From assembly GCA_025350055.1 (NCBI GenBank), contig JANXYK010000008.1, positions 1-64,000 on the forward strand: DNA of 64,000 nucleotides, read 5' to 3'. The translations under genes and the position numbers were made by a program. Every line of letters starts with the position of its first letter. Position 1 is the first letter of the stretch. A model generated the notes under the pieces. It did not search any database and was not told the origin of the DNA. It worked only from the letters and a program-made list of their open reading frames with translations. Shown piece by piece: positions 49,392 through 63,947 of this stretch. This stretch comes from Gammaproteobacteria bacterium (lineage in GTDB: Bacteria > Pseudomonadota > Gammaproteobacteria > Steroidobacterales > Steroidobacteraceae).

Positions 49392-50042
49392 TCAGTCGCT
49401 GTCGTGCTTGGGGTGGTGTGGACCAAACAGCAGGCCGTGCCCAGGTTGCGTGAAAAGCTGGCTGCTCGTCATGGCAGCGACCTGATGACTGAAATCAGTC
49501 TTTGAGTTGATGATCTGATTTAGCGCGGCGCCGATCAGCGCACCCAGCAGTCCACCGGAATTGTTGTTGGGGTTCTGCTGCACGGTGGCTATGCCCTCCC
49601 AAAGGGTCTGGCCGGTCTGGGTATCGACCAGTTTGGCCCGCGAGGAGACGACGGTCGTGCTTGCCAGGACGGCGTACTTGGTGCCGTATTGCTGCAGATC
49701 GAGGTACAGCACGGCGTCGGCACCGACGATCTCGCGCAGTTTTGCCAATGGCACCTGATGCATCTCGCCAGCCGTGGGTAGGCCGTTTTCCTTGAGGTAC
49801 TCGTCGATGACCTGCACGGGGTAGACATAGTAACCCTGTTCGGCGATTGGCAGGCTAACCGTAGACAGGAAGGAGTAGGGCCCGTTGACTTCGACGCTTT
49901 CGTTAAGTGGCGGCAGTACAAGTATCGAGACCGGCCGACGGGCACGCAAGGCCGAATAGTCGTAGGGTCGCACTTCGACACAGCCCGCGAGCGCTGTCGC
50001 CGCCAGCAGCACTGCAACGGCAGCTTTCCGACGCGCGCTCAT
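49392..50042 (-). CDS. DUF799 (GNA1162-type) lipoprotein
   Basis: A 216-residue lipoprotein with lipobox ATALAGC (Cys20). The mature part has the DUF799 features SILVLPPLNESVEVNGPYSFLSTVSLPIAEQGYYVYPV and VGADAVLYLDLQQYGTKY, then a Gly-rich segment GGLLGALIGAALNQI. It is related to the Neisseria GNA1162 surface antigen and to the CsgG fold. It is the last of three overlapping lipoprotein genes (4-bp overlap with DUF4810), a conserved trio thought to form an outer-membrane complex. Confidence 0.88.
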   Translation of the reverse strand: MSARRKAAVAVLLAATALAGCVEVRPYDYSALRARRPVSILVLPPLNESVEVNGPYSFLSTVSLPIAEQGYYVYPVQVIDEYLKENGLPTAGEMHQVPLAKLREIVGADAVLYLDLQQYGTKYAVLASTTVVSSRAKLVDTQTGQTLWEGIATVQQNPNNNSGGLLGALIGAALNQIINSKTDFSHQVAAMTSSQLFTQPGHGLLFGPHHPKHDSD

Positions 50043-50395
50043 TGCGTCTTTCCGATATTGGCCAGCAACCTATCCACGAATACGCTGGACTCGGGGAATT
50101 CGGCTTTCTCGGTATGCAACTCGCGCACCGCATCGTCAACCTTGCCCAGCTTGAAATACTGGACACCCAGGTGCGCGTGCCAGCCCGGGGGCATGCGGGC
50201 ATGTTTCGCCAGGGCCTGCTGGTAATCGCGCTCGAGAAGTTCTACTTGCTGTACAGGTGGCACACCGCCAGGCTCGTGGTAGGACTGGTATAGCAGTGCC
50301 TGGTAGTTGCCCCAGTAATAAATCGTTGGCTGCGCCGCACAGCCCGCCAGGGTCAGCGTCGCCAGCGCGGCAGACCGCCCCAGCAGAGGAATCAC
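50039..50395 (-). CDS. DUF4810 lipoprotein
   Basis: About 118 residues from GTG 50395, which overlaps the CsgG-like stop by 4 bp (an ATG at 50422 would overlap more). The lipobox is LTLAGC. The mature part TIYYWGNYQALLYQSYHEPG and LERDYQQALAKHARMPPGWHAHLGVQYFKLGK is a TPR-like helical unit typical of DUF4810. It is the middle gene of the CsgG-DUF4810-DUF799 operon. Confidence 0.85.
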   Translation of the reverse strand: MIPLLGRSAALATLTLAGCAAQPTIYYWGNYQALLYQSYHEPGGVPPVQQVELLERDYQQALAKHARMPPGWHAHLGVQYFKLGKVDDAVRELHTEKAEFPESSVFVDRLLANIGKTQ

Positions 50396-51084
50396 GGTTT
50401 GGCGTCGTGGCTGGCCTGCCACTTGCCCTGCCCGAGACCCTCGACCAACCGGTCGATGGCCTCGCGAATGGCGAAGTCAAGCACTTTGCCATTGAGGGTT
50501 GAGTCATAGCCGCTGGTACCGCCGAAGCCGATGACCTCGCGGTCGCTCAATGCATATTCGCCCGCACCGGAGGCGGTATACACGACTTGGGATGTAGCCA
50601 CATCGACAATATTGAGCGTGACTTTGGAGTAAGCCGTCTGCTTCTTGCCGGATCCCAGGATTCCGAACAGCTGCACGTCGCCGGTCTCCTTGCGCCCGAA
50701 TTCTGTGACGTCGCCAGTGACCATGTAGCTGGCGCCCGTGATGGATTGGGCCTTGCCGGAGTATCCCGCCTCGCGCCCCAGTTCCTTCATGTTGTCGCGA
50801 TCCAGCACCGAGAAGCGCCCGGTTTCCTGCAGGTGTCCGATCAGCAAGGTCTTGGCCTGACCGCCCAGGCGATCCACGCCGTCAGAGAAGATGCCGCGCA
50901 GGTATTGCGAGCGATTGTCGAACTGGCCCACGACAATCGCGTGGCGGGGACCGCTGTAGGCGGCCACGGTCGCTGCTGTGACTGGCTTCTCTACCTTCAC
51001 GGCCTGATGCGTCTCAGTCGCGCACGCCGCCAGCAGCAGGGCGGAGAGAGTGGCAGGCAGGCATTGCACGAGTCGGCTATTCAT
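50392..51084 (-). CDS. CsgG/HfaB-family lipoprotein
   Basis: A 230-residue protein from ATG 51084 (MNSRLVQCLPATLSALLLAAC, a lipobox). The mature part has the CsgG fold: RHAIVVGQFDNRSQYLRGIF, GRFSVLDRDNMKELGREAG, ASYMVTGDVTEFG, LNIVDVATSQVVYTASGAGEY and a C-terminal ATP-independent pore-type helix pattern. CsgG homologues form outer-membrane secretion channels. No curli-type subunit gene is adjacent here, so the cargo is unknown. It is first of the three-gene lipoprotein operon. Confidence 0.87.
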   Translation of the reverse strand: MNSRLVQCLPATLSALLLAACATETHQAVKVEKPVTAATVAAYSGPRHAIVVGQFDNRSQYLRGIFSDGVDRLGGQAKTLLIGHLQETGRFSVLDRDNMKELGREAGYSGKAQSITGASYMVTGDVTEFGRKETGDVQLFGILGSGKKQTAYSKVTLNIVDVATSQVVYTASGAGEYALSDREVIGFGGTSGYDSTLNGKVLDFAIREAIDRLVEGLGQGKWQASHDAKP

Positions 51085-51258
51085 GGGGCACCCGCGAGTG
51101 ATGTTGAAGCGCAATTCGCAGGTTCAAAACTACCAGAAACTTGGGTCGCGGCAAGTGGGAAATGCATTTCTTTGGCTGGCTGGAGAAAGTAGCGGGCGCG
51201 TGTTGACGATAACTTGCAGAAGACCGAAGCTTGCCGCAGTACAAGGCGGAAGCAGCAG

Positions 51259-54200
51259 ATGGCGTCTGGACGATCGCTCGCATGGGTAGCTGCAGTGCTG
51301 GTGGGCGCTGGCCTGTTGGCCACGGTGCATTTTGCGCATCATCAACGAACTACGCTCGCGGCGGTCGATTTCAGCCGCGATATCCGTCCGATCTTCAACC
51401 AGTACTGCGTGTCCTGCCACGGTGGTGTGCGCCAGCGGAATAATGTTTCCTTCATCTATCGTGAGGAAGCCCTCGGCAAGGGCAGTTCCGGTCGCGCGAC
51501 CATCGTGCCCGGGAGCCCGGAGACCTCGGAGCTGATCGCGCGGGTCACCGCAACCGACCCTGAAGTGCGCATGCCCTATCACGCGCCGGCGCTGCAGCCG
51601 CAACAGATCGTGCTGTTGCGGCAATGGATCCGGGAAGGCGCCCAGTGGAGTGACCATTGGGCTTTCGTGCCGCCCAGGGAACAGGCCCTGCCATCCGTCG
51701 GTCACGCGCAGTGGCCGCGGCAACCCATGGACCGCTTCATATTGTCCGCTCTTGAGCAGCGAAGCTTGCAGCCTGCGGTCGAGGCCACGCGTGCACAGCT
51801 GCTGCGCCGCGCCTCTTTTGACCTGACGGGATTGCCTCCGACCGCACAAGAGCTGGCTGAGTTTCTGGCCGATACGGCGCCCGATGCCTATGAGCGCCAG
51901 GTCGACAGGTTGCTGGCATCACCGCACTACGGCGAGCGCTGGGCGGCGCTGTGGATGGATCTGGCCCGCTATGCGGACAGCCGTGGGTACGAAGCCGATC
52001 ACGACCGGGTAGTCTGGCCATGGCGTGATTGGGTGATCAACGCCTTCAATCGAAATCTCAGCTACGAGCAGTTTGTCACTACGCAGCTGGCGGGCGACCT
52101 ATTGCCCAATGCCAGCCTCGATGATCGTATCGCGACCACCTTCCAGCGCCTGACGCCGGTGAACGATGAAGGCGGCACGGACGACGAAGAGTTCCGCCTG
52201 GTGGCCGTGATGGATCGCGTTGCGACCACCTGGTCGGTGCTCAACGGCCTGACGATGAACTGCGTGCAATGTCACTCGCATCCCTATGATCCGATCCGGC
52301 ACGCGGAGTACTACAAGTTTCTGGGGTTCTACAACACCTCGCGCGATGCTGATCTGTCTGATGACTATCCGACGTTGTCGGTGCCGAAGGACCACTCGCA
52401 GCGCGGCGCCGTGGCGGCGCTGGCTGCGCGACGCGCGCAGCTGCTGCACGATGTAGTGAGCGCGGGCCGCGCGCTGCAAGCCAGGGCACAATGGAGCGCG
52501 CTGCCAGTGGAAAGGGGCACGATGCAGGAAGTGCCGGCACTGGAGCGGAACCTGCGTATCTACGAGCAGGCCAGGCAGCAACGCCTGAACCCGGATCCGG
52601 ACTTGAAGCGCACGCCCAGGCAGCTGGAGAAGTTCTACAGCTCCTCGATCAAGGGTTGGCGCGCGGATCTGCAACGGGCACGCGAGCAGGCATTGAGCGT
52701 GGCGCTCGTCCGTGATGGCGCAGGCGGTGTACAGGTCAGTGGCACGATTCCAGTGCTCTCGGAGTTCCAGGTGCAGACGGTCGCGCCAACCAAGATTGTG
52801 ACCGCACTGCGCGTCGAGTCGCCGGTGCTCAATCCCGCGCTGGCTGGTCATACGCCAGAAGATGGCTTCATCGTCGATCGCATCAGCGTGTGGATCGTGC
52901 AGGCCGACGGCCGCGAGGAGCGGGTCGCCATCCGCTATTTCCTGCCTGATGCCGAGGACAATCTGCTTGCCGCGGTACGCTCACCCTATCCACTCAGCGA
53001 AGCGCGCGACGCCGAGCTGGACAGCAGCGGCTTTGCTGCCAATTCCAAGCTGTTCCGCTCGCGTTGGGTGGTGGCTGTGCCGGCGCGAGTCCTGAATGTA
53101 CCGGCGGGCGCTCACCTCAAGCTGCTGTTGCTGCACACCACGGGCATAGATTCCAGGCCGGCACCACTGCGAAGGATTCATCTCTATGCGAGCGCTGACC
53201 CGATCTGGCAATCACCCGCCACGGAGCAGCAGCTGGCGGCGCGTCTCGGCGAGTTGGTCGGGGTGCAGCGACAACTGGAGCAGGTGCCCAGCATCGCGCT
53301 GCCGGTAATGGCCGAGCAGTCGGACTTCGAGCAACGCCAGTCGCTGGAATTCGAGCGCGGCAATTTCCTGAGCAAGGTGGGTCCGCCACTGCAGCCCGAC
53401 GTGCCGGCGATCTTTCCAAAGATCCCTGCGGACGCGCCACGCAACCGCTTGACCATGGCGCAATGGTTCTTCTCCAGGGATCAGCCGTTGACAGCGCGGG
53501 TGGCCGTGAACCGCTATTGGGAGCAACTCTTCGGCACTGGCCTGGTCGAGACCCTCGAGGATTTCGGCAGTGCCGGGCAGGCGCCGAGCCACCCGCAGCT
53601 GCTCGACTGGCTGGCGCTGCATTTCCAGCGTGATCTGCACTGGGACATGAAGGCATTGCTGCGCGAACTGGCGACCAGCGCAACCTATCGCCAGAGTGCG
53701 CGCACTACACCCGCCATCGCGGCACAGGATCCGCGCAACCGATGGCTGTCTCACGGACCGCAGCAACGTCTCAGCGCGGAAATGGTGCGTGACCAGGCGC
53801 TGGTGGCCAGCGGCCTGTACAGCCCGGAGATCGGCGGGCCGCCAGTGAAACCACCGCAACCCGCTGGCGTGTGGATGAGTGTGTATGACGATCGGGTTTG
53901 GGAAGATGCGAAGGGCCCGGAACGATACCGCCGCGCCATCTATACCTATCTGCGACGCACGGCACTGTACCCCAGCTTCGTCACCTTTGATGGCGCGGAT
54001 CACATCGTGAGCCTGCCGCGCCGCACTGTGACCAACACGCCCTTGCAGGCCCTGGTTACGCTGAATGATCCCGTGTACCAGGAAGCCAGCGAGGCGCTGG
54101 CGCGGCGCATGCTGGCGCTCGATCAGTCGCTGTCCGCGCGCCTTGACTATGCGGCCCGTTGCGTGCTCTCGCGCGAGCTGAGCGCAGATGAGCACAAGAC

Positions 54201-54321
54201 ACTGACCAACTTTGTGCTCAAGGCAAGACACGCGTCGGCCGCCGGCAGTGCGAACGAACGTGCCGCTTACACGGCGCTTGCGAGCGTGCTTTTTAATCTC
54301 GATGCTGCATTGACGAGGTAG
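51259..54321 (+). CDS. PSD1 protein: planctomycete-type cytochrome c + DUF1549 + DUF1553
   Basis: About 1020 residues from ATG 51259 (GGCGGAAG upstream; TTG 51214 is an alternative). An N-terminal anchor (SLAWVAAVLVGAGLLATVHF) leads to a cytochrome c domain with CVSCH in FNQYCVSCHGG. DUF1549 follows (MDRFILSALEQRSLQPA, LLRRASFDLTGLPPT, ARYADSRGYEADHDRVVWPWRDWVI), including NCVQCHSHPYDPI, a second CxxCH. The C-terminus is DUF1553 (FFSRDQPLTARVAVNRYWEQLFGTGLVET, DFGSAGQAPSHPQLLDWLA, LSAEMVRDQALVASGL, TVTNTPLQALVTLNDPVY). This composition is typical of Planctomycetes. It is exported. Function unknown. Confidence 0.92.
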   Translation: MASGRSLAWVAAVLVGAGLLATVHFAHHQRTTLAAVDFSRDIRPIFNQYCVSCHGGVRQRNNVSFIYREEALGKGSSGRATIVPGSPETSELIARVTATDPEVRMPYHAPALQPQQIVLLRQWIREGAQWSDHWAFVPPREQALPSVGHAQWPRQPMDRFILSALEQRSLQPAVEATRAQLLRRASFDLTGLPPTAQELAEFLADTAPDAYERQVDRLLASPHYGERWAALWMDLARYADSRGYEADHDRVVWPWRDWVINAFNRNLSYEQFVTTQLAGDLLPNASLDDRIATTFQRLTPVNDEGGTDDEEFRLVAVMDRVATTWSVLNGLTMNCVQCHSHPYDPIRHAEYYKFLGFYNTSRDADLSDDYPTLSVPKDHSQRGAVAALAARRAQLLHDVVSAGRALQARAQWSALPVERGTMQEVPALERNLRIYEQARQQRLNPDPDLKRTPRQLEKFYSSSIKGWRADLQRAREQALSVALVRDGAGGVQVSGTIPVLSEFQVQTVAPTKIVTALRVESPVLNPALAGHTPEDGFIVDRISVWIVQADGREERVAIRYFLPDAEDNLLAAVRSPYPLSEARDAELDSSGFAANSKLFRSRWVVAVPARVLNVPAGAHLKLLLLHTTGIDSRPAPLRRIHLYASADPIWQSPATEQQLAARLGELVGVQRQLEQVPSIALPVMAEQSDFEQRQSLEFERGNFLSKVGPPLQPDVPAIFPKIPADAPRNRLTMAQWFFSRDQPLTARVAVNRYWEQLFGTGLVETLEDFGSAGQAPSHPQLLDWLALHFQRDLHWDMKALLRELATSATYRQSARTTPAIAAQDPRNRWLSHGPQQRLSAEMVRDQALVASGLYSPEIGGPPVKPPQPAGVWMSVYDDRVWEDAKGPERYRRAIYTYLRRTALYPSFVTFDGADHIVSLPRRTVTNTPLQALVTLNDPVYQEASEALARRMLALDQSLSARLDYAARCVLSRELSADEHKTLTNFVLKARHASAAGSANERAAYTALASVLFNLDAALTR

Positions 54322-54326
54322 AGGCC

Positions 54327-55850
54327 ATGAGCCACAAGGACATCGACATCAATCCCGCACTCGCGCAGCTGCAGGCACAGACGCGCCGCCATTTCCTGCA
54401 GGGTTGCGCGGGGGGGCTCGGCGCGATGTTCATGGGTAGCGTGGGCGGCCTGACGCCGCTGACCTCGCAGGCAGCGGCGCACGAAGCTGGCGAGGAAGCG
54501 CGGCTGGATTTCAGGCGAGATGCGGCGCGACCGCTCTCACCGTTGCCGCCGCAGTTCGCGCCCAAGGCGCGGCGCGTGATCTTCCTGCACATGGCCGGGG
54601 CACCCAGCCAGCTCGAACTGTTCGAACATAAGCCGGTGCTGACGCGCTTCGACGGCACCGATTGTCCGCAGTCTTACCTGGCCGGCAAGCGCTTTGCATT
54701 CATCAGTGGCGTGCCCAAGTTGCTTGGTGCTCAATATCCCTTCCATCAGGCGGGCAGCCACGGGCAGTGGATCTCCGATCGGCTGCCGCACCTGGAACGA
54801 CAGATCGATGAGCTGTGTTTCGTGCGCTCGATGCACACCGACCAGTTCAACCATGCGCCAGCGCAGCTGCTGGTGCAGACCGGCAATGCGCGCATGGGCT
54901 ATGCCTCGTTCGGATCCTGGGTGACCTATGGGCTCGGCACCGAGAACCAGAACCTGCCCGGCTTCATCGTGCTGCTCTCGGGCGGCAAGTCGCCGGATGG
55001 CGGCAAGCAGCTGTGGGGTTCGGGTTATCTGCCGAGCGTGTACCAGGGCGTGCAGTGCCGGTCGCAGGGCGAGCCCGTGCTGTATCTGCATAACCCGCCC
55101 GGCGTCAGTCGGCCGCTGCGCCGCCAGATGCTCGATGCCATCGGCGCCATCAACCAGCAGACCTACGCGGGTTTCGGGAATCCGGAGACCCTGACGCGCG
55201 TCGCGCAGTACGAAATGGCCTTCCGCATGCAACTCGATGCCAGCGATGCGATGGACATACACACCGAGCCCGCCAGTGTACAGGCGCGCTACGGTGTCGA
55301 GACCGGCAAGAGCAGCTTTGCCAACAACTGTCTGGTGGCGCGGCGTCTTGCGGAGCGCGGTGTGCGCTTCATCCAGTTGTACCACTGGGGCTGGGATTCG
55401 CATGGTTCGTCGGAAAATGAAGCCCTGAATATCGGCTTCAAGAAGCGCTGCCTCGAGGTCGACCAGCCGATGGCGGCATTGCTCGCTGACCTGAAAGAGC
55501 GCGGGATGCTCGACGATACGCTCATCGTGTGGGGAGGCGAGTTCGGCCGCACTCCCATGCGCGAGAATCGCGATGGCCAGCAGATGAAATACGTGGGTCG
55601 CGACCACAACCCCGGCGCCTATACGATGTGGCTGGCCGGCGGCGGCATCCGCCGCGGCATGAGCTACGGCGAGACCGACGAAATGGGTTACGAGATCGTC
55701 CGCGATCCGGTCGAGATCCGTGATCTGCACGCGACCATGCTGTATCTGCTGGGCTTCGATCATCGCAAGTTGAACTACCCCTACCAGGGGCTGGAGCAGA
55801 AACTGACCAGCGTGAAGCCGGCCCGGGTGATCGCCGAATTGCTCGCATGA
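54327..55850 (+). CDS. Tat-exported DUF1501 protein
   Basis: A 507-residue protein with a twin-arginine signal (RRHFLQGCAGGLGAMFMG). It has the DUF1501 core: RVIFLHMAGAPSQLELFEHKP, SMHTDQFNHAPAQLLVQTG, SFGSWVTYGLGTENQNLPGFIVL, WDSHGS and VWGGEFGRTPMRENRDG. The family is distantly related to sulfatases/alkaline phosphatases, with conserved His and Asp residues that may bind metal. It starts 5 bp after the PSD1 stop and overlaps the cytochrome gene by 4 bp. In Planctomycetes this pair is nearly always together. Its reaction is unknown. Confidence 0.92.
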   Translation: MSHKDIDINPALAQLQAQTRRHFLQGCAGGLGAMFMGSVGGLTPLTSQAAAHEAGEEARLDFRRDAARPLSPLPPQFAPKARRVIFLHMAGAPSQLELFEHKPVLTRFDGTDCPQSYLAGKRFAFISGVPKLLGAQYPFHQAGSHGQWISDRLPHLERQIDELCFVRSMHTDQFNHAPAQLLVQTGNARMGYASFGSWVTYGLGTENQNLPGFIVLLSGGKSPDGGKQLWGSGYLPSVYQGVQCRSQGEPVLYLHNPPGVSRPLRRQMLDAIGAINQQTYAGFGNPETLTRVAQYEMAFRMQLDASDAMDIHTEPASVQARYGVETGKSSFANNCLVARRLAERGVRFIQLYHWGWDSHGSSENEALNIGFKKRCLEVDQPMAALLADLKERGMLDDTLIVWGGEFGRTPMRENRDGQQMKYVGRDHNPGAYTMWLAGGGIRRGMSYGETDEMGYEIVRDPVEIRDLHATMLYLLGFDHRKLNYPYQGLEQKLTSVKPARVIAELLA

Positions 55851-56749
55851 GTGATGCCGGGGTCCATGCGGCCGACCTTGGGCGGCGCAGGCTGTCGGCG
55901 CGCCGCTATATCAGCTGGGTGGCACTGCTGACGGTGGCGACGGTGGCGGCATTCGCGATGCTGCGACCCAGCCTTGCGCATGCGATCCGCGAGACCCTGG
56001 GCCTGGAACGTCCGCCGCTGCAGTCGCCGCAGTCATTCTACGCAGCGCGCGTCGCGCCGATCTTCGATCAGCATTGCAGGAGCTGTCACGGACCAGGGCG
56101 ACAGAAAGCCAAGCTGCGGCTGGATTCACTGGGAGCCGCTTTGCGCGGTGGTAAACACGGCGCGGTGATCGCACCGGGCAATCCCGGCGGCAGCGGATTG
56201 GTGCAGCGTATCGCGCTGCCCGCCGGGAGTGAGCGGCTGATGCCACCGAGCAGCCTGTCGCCGCTCGCTCCCGATGATGTCACCGTGATCAAGCTCTGGA
56301 TTGCCGCCGGCGCCTCGGGCGTGCAGCCCCTGAGTGCATTCAGCACGGCGCCAAAGCCTGTAGCGCAAGTCACCATCCTCGCGGTAGATCCCAAGGTACT
56401 GGCAGCGGAGCGCGCGCCTGTCGATGGGCCGCTGCAGGCTCTGCAGCGGCGCTTCCCGTATGTCATCGACTATGAGGCACGCAGCTCGGCGCGACTGGAA
56501 TTGAATGCTTCGCGACTGGGGCGCAGTTTTGGCGATCGGGAGTTTGCAGCCTTTGCGCCCGTGGTTGCCTCGATCGTGCGCGTCGATCTGTCGGGTACTG
56601 CCGTGGGCGAAGCTTCCACGCAGGCGCTGCTCGCCATGACAAACCTGCGCACTCTGCGACTGGTGGGTGTGCACGCTGGCCCGTCATTGGCTGCGGCGCT
56701 GGCGAGCATGCGAGAGCGGGGCATCCGCGTCTATGCAGACACCCCTTAA
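55847..56749 (+). CDS. Membrane-anchored cytochrome c with leucine-rich C-terminal tail
   Basis: A 300-residue protein. A TM helix near residues 22-42 (YISWVALLTVATVAAFAML) anchors it. A haem-binding CRSCH (Cys77, Cys80, His81) follows in QSFYAARVAPIFDQHCRSCHGPG, with LRLDSLGAALRGGKHGAVIAPG and ERLMPPSS giving the distal Met region. This is the planctomycete-type cytochrome c. The C-terminal 100 residues are leucine-rich (VVASIVRVDLSGTAVGE, LLAMTNLRTLRLVGVHAG), as in planctomycete relatives. It is coupled to DUF1501 (4-bp overlap) and overlaps the cytochrome b gene by 17 bp. Confidence 0.88.
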   Translation: MSDAGVHAADLGRRRLSARRYISWVALLTVATVAAFAMLRPSLAHAIRETLGLERPPLQSPQSFYAARVAPIFDQHCRSCHGPGRQKAKLRLDSLGAALRGGKHGAVIAPGNPGGSGLVQRIALPAGSERLMPPSSLSPLAPDDVTVIKLWIAAGASGVQPLSAFSTAPKPVAQVTILAVDPKVLAAERAPVDGPLQALQRRFPYVIDYEARSSARLELNASRLGRSFGDREFAAFAPVVASIVRVDLSGTAVGEASTQALLAMTNLRTLRLVGVHAGPSLAAALASMRERGIRVYADTP

Positions 56750-57398
56750 GCTGGTGCGCGTCTGGGATCTGCCGGTGCGGGTATTCCACTGGAGCTTGGT
56801 GTTGCTGGTGCTGTGCTCATGGGTGAGCGCGGAGAACGGTCTGCTGAGAGTGCATCTGTGGTCGGGCCTGGCCTTGCTGACCCTGCTGGTGTTTCGCATC
56901 ATCTGGGGTTTCGTTGGCTCGAGCACCGCGCGGTTCAGTCAGTTCGTGCGCAGCCCCAGGCAGGCGCTGGAATACCTTCGGGCGACGAAGCGTGGCGAAG
57001 GACAGCTACACGCTGGTCACAACCCAGCCGGCGGCTGGATGGTGCTGGCATTGCTCACTGTGCTCTCACTGCAGGCCATGACCGGCCTGTTCAGCAATGA
57101 TGGCATTCGTTTCTTCGGGCCACTGGCGGCACGGATCAGTGCCGCGTTATCCGATCGCCTGACTACTCTGCATGGCACGATCTTCAATGTGATCCTGACA
57201 TTTGTGTGGTTGCACATCGTGGCTGTGCTGTACTACCGCTACGTGCGCGCTGAGAATCTGGTTGCGCCCATGATCAATGGCAGCAAGCCGGATGCCATGT
57301 TGCCTGCCGGCCCGCCACCGAAACTCGTGGCCGTGCGCTGGGCGCTGCTGTGCCTGGTGTTCGCCGTGTTGTTGGTCTGGTGGATCCTGAAGCCCTGA
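56733..57398 (+). CDS. Cytochrome b561-type membrane subunit
   Basis: A 221-residue integral membrane cytochrome b from ATG 56733. It has VRVWDLPVRVFHWSLVLLVLCSW with the first haem His, LLRVHLWSGLALLTLLVFRIIWG, AGHNPAGGWMVLALLTVLSLQAMTGLF and LHGTIFNVILTFVWLHIVAVLYYRY with further His ligands. This is the Ni-hydrogenase/b561-type fold also seen in cytochromes that feed periplasmic dehydrogenases. The gene overlaps the cytochrome c gene, so it likely reduces or oxidises that protein. Confidence 0.88.
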   Translation: MQTPLKLVRVWDLPVRVFHWSLVLLVLCSWVSAENGLLRVHLWSGLALLTLLVFRIIWGFVGSSTARFSQFVRSPRQALEYLRATKRGEGQLHAGHNPAGGWMVLALLTVLSLQAMTGLFSNDGIRFFGPLAARISAALSDRLTTLHGTIFNVILTFVWLHIVAVLYYRYVRAENLVAPMINGSKPDAMLPAGPPPKLVAVRWALLCLVFAVLLVWWILKP

Positions 57399-57417
57399 CC
57401 CTTCTCTGGAGCCGAAC

Positions 57418-58527
57418 ATGAAGCACTCCGACAGTCTCCTGGTGTCCCGAAGATCGGTGCTGGCAGCTGCGCCGTTGGTAGTTGCCGGAGCAGGGGCCGC
57501 GCTGCACTCTCACGAGGCTGCTGCGGCCGCGAAACGATCGTCAATGGCTGGTCGCCTCGAACCCGAGCGACTCGGGCAGGGTGAATTCCAGTATCGCGCT
57601 GATCGCTATTGGGGCCGGCTTGATCGGCAACGTTACCCAGTTGCCGATTGCCACGGCATTGCCGAGGATCGCGGTGGCCGCATCGTGATGCTGACCAATG
57701 ACACGCACAACAACCTGATTGCCTATGCGCACAGCGGAGAGTTCCGGGCCGCCTGGGAAAGCCGCTTTCCGGCCGCGCACGGCTTCGATATCGTGGAGCA
57801 CGCCGGCGACGAGCAGTTCTGGATCACCGATCACGACCGGCAGGTCGTATCGGTCTGTACACCTGATGGGCGTGAGCTGCGTTCCATCGGCCTCGCGGCC
57901 GTCGCACAGAAATATCCGGACCCCACGCGCTATCATCCGACCAACAGCGCCACCTTGCCTGATGGCCAGTGCTATGTGAGCGATGGCTATGGCTCCAGCT
58001 TCGTGCATCACTTCGATCCGGAGGGCCGCTATATCGCGAGCTTTGGCGGCGAGGGCGATGCGCCTGAGCAGCTGAGGACACCGCATGCGGTGTGGATCGA
58101 CAACCGCTCCAGCAAGCCGCTGTTGCTGGTCTGCGATCGCGGGCATGAGATGCTGAAGTGGTTTTCATTGGAAGGCGAGTTGCTGAAGATTGTGCCGGTG
58201 CCGGGTTCTCAGCCCAGCAATGTGGCGCCCTTCCCCGGCAGGCTCCACGATCATCTCGCCGTCGCCTGCCTGAGTGGCATGATCATGATCCTGGACGGCG
58301 CCGATCGTGTGGTCTCCTGTGTGGGGGGTGAGCCGCCGAAGTACGTCGATGGCAAACTGCAGCCGCTGTCCGTGTACAACTACCTCTTCGCCCATCCGCA
58401 CGACGTGTACGTCGATGCCGAAGGCGCGCTTTATGTCGTGCAGTGGTCATCGAACCAGACCTACCCGATCAAGCTGGAGCTGGCGGCGCCGAGCAAGGCT
58501 CGGCACAGCACCGGCAATACCCTATGA
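57418..58527 (+). CDS. Tat-exported NHL-repeat (six-bladed) propeller protein
   Basis: A 369-residue protein with a twin-arginine-like signal SRRSVLAAAPLVVAGAGAAL and AAAAA cleavage region. The mature part is a six-bladed NHL-type propeller: ADCHGIAEDRGGRIVMLTNDT, HGFDIVEHAGDEQFWITDHDRQ, YVSDGYGSSFVHHFDPEGRYIASFGGEG and LFAHPHDVYVDAEGALYVVQWSS. Conserved His at blade starts (CHGIAE, PHAVWI, PHDVYV) is the pattern of peptidyl-hydroxyglycine lyase-like NHL domains, which use His and metal. Its role in the cluster is unknown. Confidence 0.85.
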   Translation: MKHSDSLLVSRRSVLAAAPLVVAGAGAALHSHEAAAAAKRSSMAGRLEPERLGQGEFQYRADRYWGRLDRQRYPVADCHGIAEDRGGRIVMLTNDTHNNLIAYAHSGEFRAAWESRFPAAHGFDIVEHAGDEQFWITDHDRQVVSVCTPDGRELRSIGLAAVAQKYPDPTRYHPTNSATLPDGQCYVSDGYGSSFVHHFDPEGRYIASFGGEGDAPEQLRTPHAVWIDNRSSKPLLLVCDRGHEMLKWFSLEGELLKIVPVPGSQPSNVAPFPGRLHDHLAVACLSGMIMILDGADRVVSCVGGEPPKYVDGKLQPLSVYNYLFAHPHDVYVDAEGALYVVQWSSNQTYPIKLELAAPSKARHSTGNTL

Positions 58528-58551
58528 TGCCGGCTACAAGGAGCCCGCAAC

Positions 58552-59130
58552 ATGCCGAGTCGCTACTCACACCGACAGATGATCGTGCATTGGCTGACCG
58601 CGTTTTGCCTGGTCGCGATCATCGCACTCGCCTGGGTGATGATTAACGCCAAGGAAGATGCGCCCTTCACCGACAGCCTCTACGATTGGCACGGTTCATT
58701 CGGCATCGTGGTGCTGGGTTTGACGGCGCTGCGCATTGTCTGGCGCTTTATCGACAGGGCGCCGCCATTGCCTTCCAACCTCGCGCCCTGGGAGCGTGCA
58801 CTGGCCGCAACGACTTTCGGGTTGTTTTATGTGTTGCTGTTGTGGATGCCGATCACCGGCTATACCGCGGCCGCGGCCGCCGGCTACTCGCTGAAGTTCT
58901 TCAACCTGGTGACGATCGCTCCGCTCGTGCCCCGGAGCGATAAGCTGAATTCGCTGATGAACACCCTCCATTTCGTGTACGGGCAGTGGGCGGTGTACAC
59001 ACTGATCGTGCTGCACGCGGCCGGTGTGGTTTTCAATGTGGTGGTCAAGCGTAACGGCATTGTGAACCGCATGCTGCCCGCGCAGGTGAATGAAGCGGCG
59101 GCTACTGGCGAGCCGGCACGAAGAATCTGA
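58552..59130 (+). CDS. Cytochrome b561
   Basis: A 192-residue four-helix membrane protein: MIVHWLTAFCLVAIIALAWVM, LYDWHGSFGIVVLGLTALRIVWRF, FGLFYVLLLWMPITGYTA and LHFVYGQWAVYTLIVLHAAGVVFNVVVKRNGIVNRMLP. The paired His residues in VHW/WHGS and LHF/VLHA are haem b ligands of the bacterial CybB family. It exchanges electrons with the quinone pool. It closes the six-gene run, 24 bp after the propeller gene. Confidence 0.92.
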   Translation: MPSRYSHRQMIVHWLTAFCLVAIIALAWVMINAKEDAPFTDSLYDWHGSFGIVVLGLTALRIVWRFIDRAPPLPSNLAPWERALAATTFGLFYVLLLWMPITGYTAAAAAGYSLKFFNLVTIAPLVPRSDKLNSLMNTLHFVYGQWAVYTLIVLHAAGVVFNVVVKRNGIVNRMLPAQVNEAAATGEPARRI

Positions 59131-62318: not shown

Positions 62319-63947
62319 TCATGCCCCGCGCGCCCTGGAATCCTCTGCCGGCATGGGCGCCCGGCCCAGTATCAGGTCACTGGCCTTCTCTGCGATCATC
62401 ACCACCGCGGCGTTGGTATTGCCACCGATAATCGAAGGGAAAACGGAGGCATCGGCGACACGCAGGCCCGTGAGGCCATGCACGCGCAAGTGCGGATCCA
62501 CGACTGCGGCTGCATCGCTACCCATGCGACAAGTGCTGACCGGGTGATGCACAGTGTAAGCCTCGGCGCGAATGTAGCTTTCCAGATCGGCATCGCTCAG
62601 CCGCTCAGGTCCCGGTGAGGATTCTGACGCGGCGTGTTTCGCAAACGCGCTGGTCGCGAACACCTGGCGCGCCAGACGGATGCCAAAGATCAGCGTCCGC
62701 AGATCCTCCGGTTCGGAAAGCAAAGCGGGGTCGATCAGCGGCGCATCAGCAGGATCGCGGCTCGCCAGCGTGAGCCGGCCTCGACTGCGCGGATACAGGC
62801 CCACCGGGCTGATTGCAAAACCATGGCCGAGCGGAAACGGAAACCTGTGGCCCGGTCGACGTGCCGGCTGGAACACCAGCTGCACATCGGGCCGATCGAC
62901 CTGCGGCGAGGATTTCACGAAGGCGGCCGATTCGAATACGTTGTTGGCTAGCGGTCCGCGGCGCGCGCACAGATACTCGGCCACGTTCCACAGCCCGCGC
63001 GGAAGCGAGCGCAGCGACAGTCCATAGGAAGTGGGGTCGCGCGTGTGCATGTGCACCGGGCTTGCCAGGTGGTCGTGCAGGTTGCGACCGACGCCTGGCA
63101 AGTGATGCTGCACATTGATGCCGAAGTTGCGCAGCCGCTCGCCATCGCCGATGCCGGAAAGCAGCAACAGTTGCGGTGAGTGGATCGCCCCGGCAGTGAG
63201 CACGATCTCGCGGCGCGCCTGCACACGGCAGCCGCCACCCGCGCCACGCGCCTCGACTGCCACGGCGCACCGATCCTGCACGACGATGTGCGTGACCTGC
63301 AGGCCGGTCAGTACGGTCAGATTGCTCCTGGCCATTGCCGGTCGCAGCATCGCGCTGGCCGAGGTCTCGCGATACCCCGCACGGATCGACAGCTGGCGCA
63401 GCCCCATGCCCTCGCTGTCCGCGCCGTTCAGGTCGGCGCGCTTTACATGGCCCAGACTCGCCAGCGCTTCGAAGAATGCAGCGTTGAGCGGATTGGGTCG
63501 CGTGACGCTGCGGACGTACATCGGCCCGTCGCGACCGTGGTACTCATCCGGGCCAAAATTCTCGTTGTGCTCGCTGCGCCTGAAATAGGGCAGGACTTCC
63601 CCGTAACTCCAGCCCGTGGTGCCGAGCGCAGCCCACTGGTCGTAGTCACGTGGATGTCCCCGGAAATACACCATGCCGTTGATCAATGCCGAGCCGCCGA
63701 GGCCGCGGCCGCGTGGAATTGCCATGCGGCGGTCATTCAGCTGCCGCTGCGGCACAGAATGCAGGCGCCAGTTCAGCGCCGCGGAACGCTGCGCCATCAC
63801 GATGGCGCCCGGCACCCGGGCCCAGAGACTGCGGCCGCTCCCACCCGCTTCCAGCAGGCACACGCGGCAGCCAGGGTCTTCCGACAGGCGCGCTGCGAGC
63901 GCGCAACCGGCACTGCCGCCGCCTACCACGACGTAGTCGAACTCCAT
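62319..63947 (-). CDS. GMC-family FAD-dependent oxidoreductase (choline-dehydrogenase type)
   Basis: A 542-residue flavoenzyme. The FAD-binding GGGSAGCALAARLSEDPG opens the protein. The GMC signatures are PRGRGLGGSALINGMVYFRG and GAIHSPQLLLLSGIG. The active-site pair near the C-terminus is His in YTVHHPVSTCRMG and Asn in SIIGGNTNAAVVMIAEKA. The family oxidises primary alcohols such as choline, glucose or aliphatic diols. No signal peptide. The start at ATG 63947 is preceded only by 53 bases to the window edge. Confidence 0.93.
   Translation of the reverse strand: MEFDYVVVGGGSAGCALAARLSEDPGCRVCLLEAGGSGRSLWARVPGAIVMAQRSAALNWRLHSVPQRQLNDRRMAIPRGRGLGGSALINGMVYFRGHPRDYDQWAALGTTGWSYGEVLPYFRRSEHNENFGPDEYHGRDGPMYVRSVTRPNPLNAAFFEALASLGHVKRADLNGADSEGMGLRQLSIRAGYRETSASAMLRPAMARSNLTVLTGLQVTHIVVQDRCAVAVEARGAGGGCRVQARREIVLTAGAIHSPQLLLLSGIGDGERLRNFGINVQHHLPGVGRNLHDHLASPVHMHTRDPTSYGLSLRSLPRGLWNVAEYLCARRGPLANNVFESAAFVKSSPQVDRPDVQLVFQPARRPGHRFPFPLGHGFAISPVGLYPRSRGRLTLASRDPADAPLIDPALLSEPEDLRTLIFGIRLARQVFATSAFAKHAASESSPGPERLSDADLESYIRAEAYTVHHPVSTCRMGSDAAAVVDPHLRVHGLTGLRVADASVFPSIIGGNTNAAVVMIAEKASDLILGRAPMPAEDSRARGA

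What the first reader, a model, noticed from the sequence alone, without database searches (positions are those of the whole stretch)
51259..59130. Planctomycete-type PSD1-DUF1501 pair wired to two cytochromes b and a Tat propeller in a Gammaproteobacterium
Six genes lie on one strand with overlaps or short gaps: PSD1 (two CxxCH, DUF1549, DUF1553), Tat DUF1501, membrane cytochrome c, cytochrome b561-type, Tat NHL propeller, cytochrome b561. The DUF1549/1553-DUF1501 pair is characteristic of Planctomycetes, where its function is unknown. The added membrane cytochromes b suggest electrons pass between quinone, haem proteins and an exported enzyme. This could be an undescribed extracytoplasmic oxidation or reduction system for an unknown substrate. 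The presence of all six in order is seen directly; the joint function is inference.
Basis: partly seen in the sequence, partly recalled or inferred. Interest (0 to 1): 0.78.

Follow-up and report, generated by a model that had tools for sequence, protein, structure and literature searches.

The report
Modular exported electron-transfer gene cassette
The gene cluster is real and is one version of a recurring, mix-and-match set of genes for an exported redox system, probably acting on sugars outside the inner membrane, in which a swappable enzyme sits beside the same haem proteins; its actual reaction has never been shown.

Summary
Six co-oriented genes at 51259-59130 are confirmed. Five (PSD1 with two haem motifs, DUF1501, membrane cytochrome c, one cytochrome b561, Tat propeller) recur together in two relatives; the second b561 does not.

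The pair is not confined to Planctomycetes. Related cassettes occur in an Acidobacterium and in Bacteroidota, where they are modular: PSD1 - DUF1501 - [variable exported enzyme] - DUF2231/PSCyt1 membrane cytochrome c. In 40 DUF1501 loci of one Bacteroidota family, not chosen for the propeller, the slot held a propeller in 13, a sugar-isomerase-like TIM barrel in 12, another propeller in 1, nothing in 10; 4 lacked the membrane cytochrome.

In the gammaproteobacterial version DUF2231 is gone and b561a stands in its place, suggesting both do the same b-haem job. The propeller carries residues of the peptidylglycine-amidating-lyase site plus a fourth invariant histidine, so it is likely an enzyme. 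DUF1501 has a sulfatase-like fold without the formylglycine cysteine.

3-keto-glycoside genes lie inside two cassettes and beside others. Best reading: periplasmic oxidation of a sugar or glycoside, electrons leaving by c and b haems. Substrate and electron direction are inference.

The parts
51259..54321 (+). PSD1 protein: N-terminal anchor, PSCyt1 haem domain, DUF1549 (second CxxCH), DUF1553; the frame is open from TTG at 51214
   Evidence: both CxxCH and the following H341 are in 23 of 23 homologs; model pLDDT 78.8 with no PDB match at E <= 0.001
54327..55850 (+). DUF1501 protein with Tat signal, alkaline phosphatase/sulfatase-like fold
   Evidence: H176, D357, H359, E405, D426, H427 invariant in 28 of 28
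55847..56749 (+). membrane-anchored PSCyt1 cytochrome c; counterpart of the DUF2231-PSCyt1 protein of other bacteria, without DUF2231
   Evidence: single anchor judged by eye
56733..57398 (+). cytochrome b561-type membrane protein (b561a), in the place of DUF2231
   Evidence: five His invariant in 4 of 4
57418..58527 (+). Tat-exported NHL propeller with a PAL-like site (variable-slot enzyme)
58552..59130 (+). second cytochrome b561 (b561b), co-oriented but not conserved with the cassette
   Evidence: not found after NHL in G663 and G657 nor in the 19.5 kb held of G543

Best explanation
This is the gammaproteobacterial form of a modular periplasmic redox cassette. The constant core is PSD1 (exported, two c-type haem motifs), DUF1501 (Tat-exported, sulfatase-like fold, not a sulfatase) and a membrane-anchored PSCyt1 cytochrome c. 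Between DUF1501 and the membrane cytochrome, or just beside it, sits an exchangeable exported enzyme: here a PAL-like propeller, elsewhere a sugar-isomerase-like TIM barrel or another propeller. I propose that PSD1 and DUF1501 bind and oxidise a sugar, glycoside or close derivative in the periplasm, and that the slot enzyme makes or cleaves the oxidised intermediate. Electrons would pass from the PSD1 haems to the membrane cytochrome c and on through b-type haems to quinone; the b haems belong to b561a here and, I infer, to the DUF2231 domain elsewhere. Shown: gene content, order, recurrence, a changing slot, b561a in the place of DUF2231, PAL-site residues. Inferred: substrate class, reaction, electron direction, haem binding by DUF2231, metal in the propeller.
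For: All five genes in G663 and G543, three of them (cytc, b561a, NHL) at a contig end in G657. Of 29 NHL loci found without regard to neighbours, 24 carry DUF1501 next to NHL or with one or two genes between; 1 is cut by the contig end (still with cytc and b561a) and 4 show none in the DNA held. Slot in 40 loci of the family of G738: DUF2231-cytochrome c in 36 of 40; NHL 13, TIM 12, PROP2 1, empty 10, no membrane cytochrome 4. All 23 NHL-linked DUF1501 as one clade is rejected, p-AU 6e-43. Gfo/Idh/MocA and 3-keto-disaccharide hydrolase genes lie between PSD1 and DUF1501 in L134 and L136 and beside the solitary NHL gene of L074. Flanking genes are richer in sugar families than a control of equal size. 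Acidobacterium L079, sister to the gammaproteobacterial clade, keeps a DUF2231-PSCyt1 fusion at the place of cytc + b561a. DUF2231 has His at five positions in 25, 25, 25, 24 and 25 of 25.
Against: No sugar genes are evident beside the window cassette, and its congeners G663/G657 have racemase-, DAO- and peptidase-like neighbours there (names by eye, not tested). The propeller also occurs without DUF1501 in the DNA held (L078, L081, L085, L086), so it does not always depend on the core. PSD1 has no flavin or NAD domain and matches no solved structure, so no oxidising centre is shown. DUF2231 and b561a profiles show no detectable homology and haem binding is untested. Some cassettes (L098, L102, L104) have no evident sugar neighbours (by eye). 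The DUF1501 model is of modest confidence, pLDDT 60.7.
Confidence: 0.5

Rival explanations
1. The electrons run the other way: quinol reduces b561a, then cytochrome c, then PSD1, which activates oxygen or peroxide and hydroxylates a substrate; the PAL-like propeller then cleaves the hydroxylated product (oxidative dealkylation, as PHM and PAL do in peptide amidation).
For: PAL-site residues H121, Y191, H223, R241, H328 in 27 of 27 propellers of this type against 5-8 of 31 generic NHL propellers; b561-type membrane subunit; invariant CxxCHxH in 23 of 23 PSD1.
Against: No monooxygenase domain in the operon; the slot is often a TIM barrel or empty, which fits a general redox core better than one fixed hydroxylase-lyase pair.
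Confidence: 0.18
2. Same redox module, but the substrate is not a carbohydrate (for instance an N-acyl or amino-acid derivative).
For: Flanking genes in G663/G657 look by eye like an Asp/Glu racemase, an FAD amino-acid oxidase and a peptidase, and the window has an amino-acid permease downstream; PAL acts on an alpha-hydroxyglycine (recalled).
Against: 3-keto-disaccharide hydrolase and Gfo/Idh/MocA genes inside two cassettes; flanking sugar families.
Confidence: 0.2
3. DUF1501 and PSD1 are not catalytic on metabolites but form a structural or sensory envelope complex.
For: DUF1501 lacks the sulfatase nucleophile; PSD1 has no recognised catalytic fold.
Against: Strict conservation of H176, D357, H359, E405, D426, H427 in 28 of 28 and of two haem sites in 23 of 23; exported sugar-enzyme-like proteins in the slot.
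Confidence: 0.08
4. The six genes are only neighbours.
For: b561b is not conserved; in G602 (L074, L078) the NHL gene stands without PSD1/DUF1501 on its 14.9-kb contig; NHL is inverted in G543.
Against: Recurring order in Gammaproteobacteria, an Acidobacterium and Bacteroidota.
Confidence: 0.04

Closest known systems
PSCyt/PSD clusters of Verrucomicrobia and Planctomycetes (PMC5615132, passages seen)
   Same: Planctomycete-type cytochrome c and PSD domains in one protein; PSCyt2 genes usually next to a family of unknown genes; carbohydrate-binding modules hint at carbohydrates
   Different: The passages seen describe neither the membrane DUF2231-PSCyt1 or b561 partner nor a swappable enzyme slot, nor this gammaproteobacterial form
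LacABC-type periplasmic lactose 3-dehydrogenase with DUF1080 (PMC9007349, passages seen)
   Same: Membrane-bound oxidation of a glycoside in the periplasm, with a putative 3-keto-glycoside hydrolase nearby
   Different: No GMC subunit in the cassette (that LacA is a GMC flavoprotein is recalled); DUF1080 lies in some cassettes but not this one
Peptidylglycine alpha-amidating lyase (PAL, PDB 3fvz)
   Same: Propeller profile match; His triad, Tyr and Arg of the PAL site aligned and invariant
   Different: Extra invariant His (H79), Tat export, no PHM partner; whether PAL's R533 has a counterpart was not shown
Sulfatase / LtaS / alkaline phosphatase superfamily
   Same: DUF1501 model matches sulfatases and LtaS (Foldseek best 1.2e-5)
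   Different: Formylglycine Cys replaced by invariant H176 and the Asp of the DN(G) metal pair by E405, both by hand alignment
DUF1501-DUF1800 pair beside bacterial chitin synthases (PMC5122149, passages seen)
   Same: Tat-exported DUF1501 with an adjacent partner of unknown function, sugar-related context
   Different: Partner is DUF1800; no c-type haem proteins described in the passages seen

Membership tests
PSD1-DUF1501 (PSCyt) pair | PSCyt1-PSCyt2-PSD1 domain order with two CxxCH | tested here: met
   both CxxCH in 23 of 23 homologs
PSD1-DUF1501 (PSCyt) pair | DUF1501 gene directly downstream | tested here: met
   PSD1 upstream of DUF1501 in 36 of 38 assessable loci of the family sample, 2 more cut by contig ends
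Modular cassette described here | Membrane PSCyt1 cytochrome c in the operon | tested here: met
Modular cassette described here | DUF2231 domain fused to the membrane cytochrome | tested here: not met
   absent in the window protein; b561a stands in its place
Sulfatase | C/S-x-P-S-R formylglycine motif (recalled) | tested here: not met
   H176-A-P-A-Q, His in 28 of 28; placing the motif at this position is by hand
PAL (amidating lyase) | Three zinc-ligand His and catalytic Tyr | tested here: met
   H121, H223, H328, Y191 align with PAL and are 27 of 27; PAL residue roles and numbers are recalled
PAL (amidating lyase) | Substrate-binding R533 (recalled) | tested here: inconclusive
   the alignment does not reach that part of PAL; N94 (27 of 27) may lie there, from memory only
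PAL (amidating lyase) | PHM monooxygenase partner | tested here: not met
   no such domain among the six proteins
PAL (amidating lyase) | Lyase activity and bound metal | not testable with these tools
   needs purified protein
LacABC glycoside 3-dehydrogenase | GMC flavoprotein subunit in the operon | tested here: not met
   the GMC gene at 62319-63947 is on the other strand and choline-dehydrogenase-like
Cytochrome b561 (Ni_hydr_CYTB) | Profile score over cut-off and conserved His | tested here: met
   (His conservation for b561a only)

The most novel reading that the evidence does not exclude
A bacterial periplasmic counterpart of the two-step peptide-amidating enzyme: PSD1 is an unrecognised c-haem oxygenase or hydroxylating dehydrogenase with a fold not matched in the PDB, DUF1501 presents the substrate, and the propeller is a four-histidine metallo-lyase that cleaves the hydroxylated or oxidised product; the lyase slot is swapped for other sugar enzymes to retarget the same haem core.
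Probability: 0.12. Interest if true: 0.9.

Novelty: new variant of a known kind. Interest (0 to 1): 0.6.

Why it matters
PSD1 and DUF1501 proteins occur in several phyla and I found no assigned reaction for them in the papers searched. Showing that they form a core with an exchangeable exported enzyme, and that a b561 takes the place of DUF2231, turns four domains of unknown function into a testable electron pathway and names isolates (Niabella aurantiaca, Flavihumibacter petaseus, Cnuella takakiae) for genetics.

Tried and rejected
Scaffold propeller: rejected as the main reading after the PAL alignment and the 27-of-27 conservation. Sulfatase: rejected, motif missing. DUF2231 as a distant b561 homolog: no support in profile comparison. 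Fold match for PSD1: none at E <= 0.001; a weak CBM32-like hit (E 0.36, probability 0.90) is not used as evidence. A PDB relative for b561a by sequence: none at E <= 0.1. A paper giving PAL residue roles: none found in the library, so they are recalled. Literature: searches showed no title or passage describing this cassette; one search listed one paper with two of its terms (PMC2754498, listing only), one with DUF2231 and cytochrome (PMC12828279, listing only), and most papers listed were not opened. Promoter/terminator scan: at chance level. Phylum-wide sample around G740: no match at E <= 1e-100 in the 60 other genomes, so this DUF1501 type is rare there; I then used one family that was known to hold it.

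Limits. No Planctomycete sequence was fetched or placed in the tree. The context control is small: 115 of 146 computed flanking genes against 115 of 118 genes from 11 stretches chosen by hand; only the 25 commonest families are printed, and some loci are close kin. Dropped from the 146: all of L092, L093 and L101 (near kin), five long proteins and some ORFs that looked spurious. Left out of the DUF1501 tree: L050, L058-L060, L087 and L103 (fragments or cut), L052 (not called by my ORF script), L092 and L101 (near kin). Gene calls in fetched loci are mechanical ORFs. Of 48 matches in the family sample 40 were fetched; of the 8 left, 6 belong to G738/G745, whose loci were seen before, and G849 and G864:C45 are cut by contig ends.
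Full report
1. Observation. The six genes are present and co-oriented; the junctions from PSD1 to b561a are a 5-bp gap and two overlaps, those after b561a are gaps of 19 and 24 bp. Pfam and NCBIfam bear out the families: PSD1 has PSCyt1, DUF1549 and DUF1553; DUF1501 is full length; gene 3 has PSCyt1; genes 4 and 6 are prokaryotic b561; gene 5 is an NHL propeller at the edge of the Pfam cut-off. The window is part of a 3.29-Mb draft genome of 76 contigs, with one PSD1 match only.

2. Is the set conserved? In 369 genomes of the class, matches to gene 5 other than its own were partial and at most 41% identical (best E 5.7e-17). In 217 genomes of the family, five others carry an ortholog at 54-76% identity: G657, G663, G602, G543 and G562 (partial). 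G663 has PSD1-DUF1501-cytc-b561a-NHL in order; the G657 contig begins inside cytc and continues b561a-NHL; G543 has the first four with NHL convergent; b561b was not found next to any of these three. G602 has NHL alone, beside a 3-keto-disaccharide hydrolase and a Gfo/Idh/MocA gene. b561b has only paralogs of at most 33% in 14 congeners. In the order, 13 of 196 genomes, own included, have a DUF1501 match; besides G543, 11 order loci were fetched, several of them short or cut, and none shows NHL.

3. Beyond the family. A pattern scan of a collection of 84,980 species with the propeller alignment gave 29 loci. DUF1501 is next to NHL or one or two genes away in 24; L076 is cut by the contig end but has cytc and b561a; L078, L081, L085 and L086 show none in the DNA held. 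Most are Bacteroidota; one is an Acidobacterium. In the four downstream membrane proteins run against Pfam there (L079, L083, L091, L104) the architecture is DUF2231 + PSCyt1, three of them also with a CHB_HEX_C match, one of these under the cut-off.

4. The slot. Other DUF1501 loci of the same genomes often showed a different gene at the propeller's place (of 12 fetched, 2 again have NHL, 6 a TIM barrel, 2 another propeller, 2 nothing): AP_endonuc_2 is over cut-off in L127, L131 and L135 and just under it in L134; the L130 slot is a Mala_s_1/arylsulfotransferase-like propeller; in L134 and L136 Gfo/Idh/MocA and 3-keto-disaccharide hydrolase genes lie between PSD1 and DUF1501. To avoid choosing loci by NHL, I took 60 genomes of the family of G738, a genome already known to hold the cassette: 23 of 60 (G738 and G745 included) have DUF1501 matches at E <= 1e-100, 48 in all; 40 were fetched. 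DUF2231-cytochrome c is present in 36 of 40; the slot holds NHL in 13, TIM in 12, PROP2 in 1, nothing in 10; 4 lack the cytochrome. PSD1 lies upstream in 36, is not assessable in 2 (contig ends) and is absent from the stretch in 2.

5. History. In a DUF1501 tree of 40 rows the window, G663, G543 and the Acidobacterium form a clade (100/99) that joins the TIM-slot lineage (100/98), away from the Bacteroidota NHL lineage; one clade for all 23 NHL-linked rows is rejected (p-AU 6e-43). The tool warns of long branches meeting, so the sister relation is less sure than the rejection, and no Planctomycete row was included. Either the propeller was recruited more than once or it was replaced by the TIM barrel; the tree cannot tell which.

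6. DUF2231 against b561a. The gammaproteobacterial cytochrome c has, by eye, a single anchor and no DUF2231 match; b561a follows it. The Acidobacterium keeps the fusion at that place. DUF2231 has His in 25, 25, 25, 24 and 25 of 25 at five positions; b561a has five invariant His in 4 of 4. No homology is detectable. I infer functional replacement and b-haem binding by DUF2231; neither is shown.

7. The propeller. Its profile matches PAL (3e-11; 1.2e-14). In one search PAL residues that I count at chain positions 94, 163, 199, 215 and 295 (recalled numbers H585, Y654, H690, R706, H786; a constant offset of 491) align with H121, Y191, H223, R241 and H328. These are 27 of 27 in propellers of this type, against H121 5, Y191 5, H223 5, R241 8 and H328 5 of 31 generic NHL proteins taken from the loci. 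H79, at the same blade position by eye, is 27 of 27 against 1 of 31, and N94 is 27 of 27 against 0. The 27 include three from loci without DUF1501 in the DNA held (L074, L081, L085) and one not assessable (L071), so the site marks the propeller family rather than the cassette alone. TRIM-type NHL proteins score higher than PAL in both searches, so the PAL likeness rests on the residues, not on rank.

8. DUF1501 and PSD1. The DUF1501 model (pLDDT 60.7) matches sulfatases and LtaS, 21 chains at E <= 0.001 with TM-scores of only about 0.2-0.4. The sulfatase C-x-P-S-R-x4-T-G stretch (recalled) corresponds by hand to H176-A-P-A-Q-x4-T-G; H176 is 28 of 28. A twin-arginine pattern lies in the first 45 residues of 27 of 28 DUF1501 and 22 of 27 propellers. 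PSD1 (pLDDT 78.8) has no PDB match at E <= 0.001 by fold; by sequence only its first haem domain gives matches of note, to FoxE, a monohaem cytochrome c and hydrazine synthase alpha.

9. Context. Families in 115 flanking genes: TIM barrel 5, GH92 3, sulfatase 3, Gfo/Idh/MocA 3, fucosidase 2, GH43 2, 3-keto-disaccharide hydrolase 2, ROK 2; in the control no sugar family is listed with more than one member. UxuA occurs once in the flanking set; by eye it is the L091 gene, which also has neighbours that look like an inositol oxygenase and a glucuronate isomerase. The window itself has no evident sugar neighbours, though its genome holds two 3-keto-disaccharide hydrolase matches elsewhere.

10. 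Literature. Passages of PMC5615132 say nothing is known about the functions of PSCyt/PSD genes and suggest carbohydrates; PMC9007349 passages describe LacABC with DUF1080; PMC5122149 passages describe DUF1501-DUF1800; passages of PMC4452313, PMC5673643 and PMC11495043 were also seen. None of the passages seen describes this cassette. The library holds only open-licence papers, so prior description elsewhere is not excluded.

11. Verdict. A real, recurring, modular exported redox cassette; five of the six genes belong. Sugar or glycoside oxidation is the likeliest role (about 0.5), with direction and substrate unproved.

Noticed in passing
window 49392-51114 (-): Three lipoprotein-like ORFs that look like a CsgG/DUF4810/GNA1162-type set (names recalled, not run), divergent from the cassette.
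   Followed up: no
window 62319-63947 (-): Choline-dehydrogenase-like GMC oxidoreductase, about 3 kb from the cassette and on the other strand.
   Followed up: no
L082:2230-11026: Two PSD1-DUF1501 pairs in tandem, only the second followed by the propeller gene.
   Followed up: partly
L079: An Acidobacterium MAG carries the nearest non-gammaproteobacterial cassette found (DUF1501 72%), suggesting transfer between phyla or a binning error.
   Followed up: partly
window PSD1 residues about 478-720: Extra beta-rich region that the shorter Bacteroidota PSD1 seem to lack; the weak CBM32-like fold hit may come from it.
   Followed up: no
L090, L091, L102: By eye, a sensor and a LytTR-type response regulator directly upstream of PSD1, possibly its regulator (LytTR counted in the set).
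   Followed up: no
L100 and L136 (same contig of G746): A propeller-slot cassette and a TIM-slot cassette have their DUF1501 genes about 11 kb apart; the PSD1 gene of the second is split into two overlapping ORFs.
   Followed up: no
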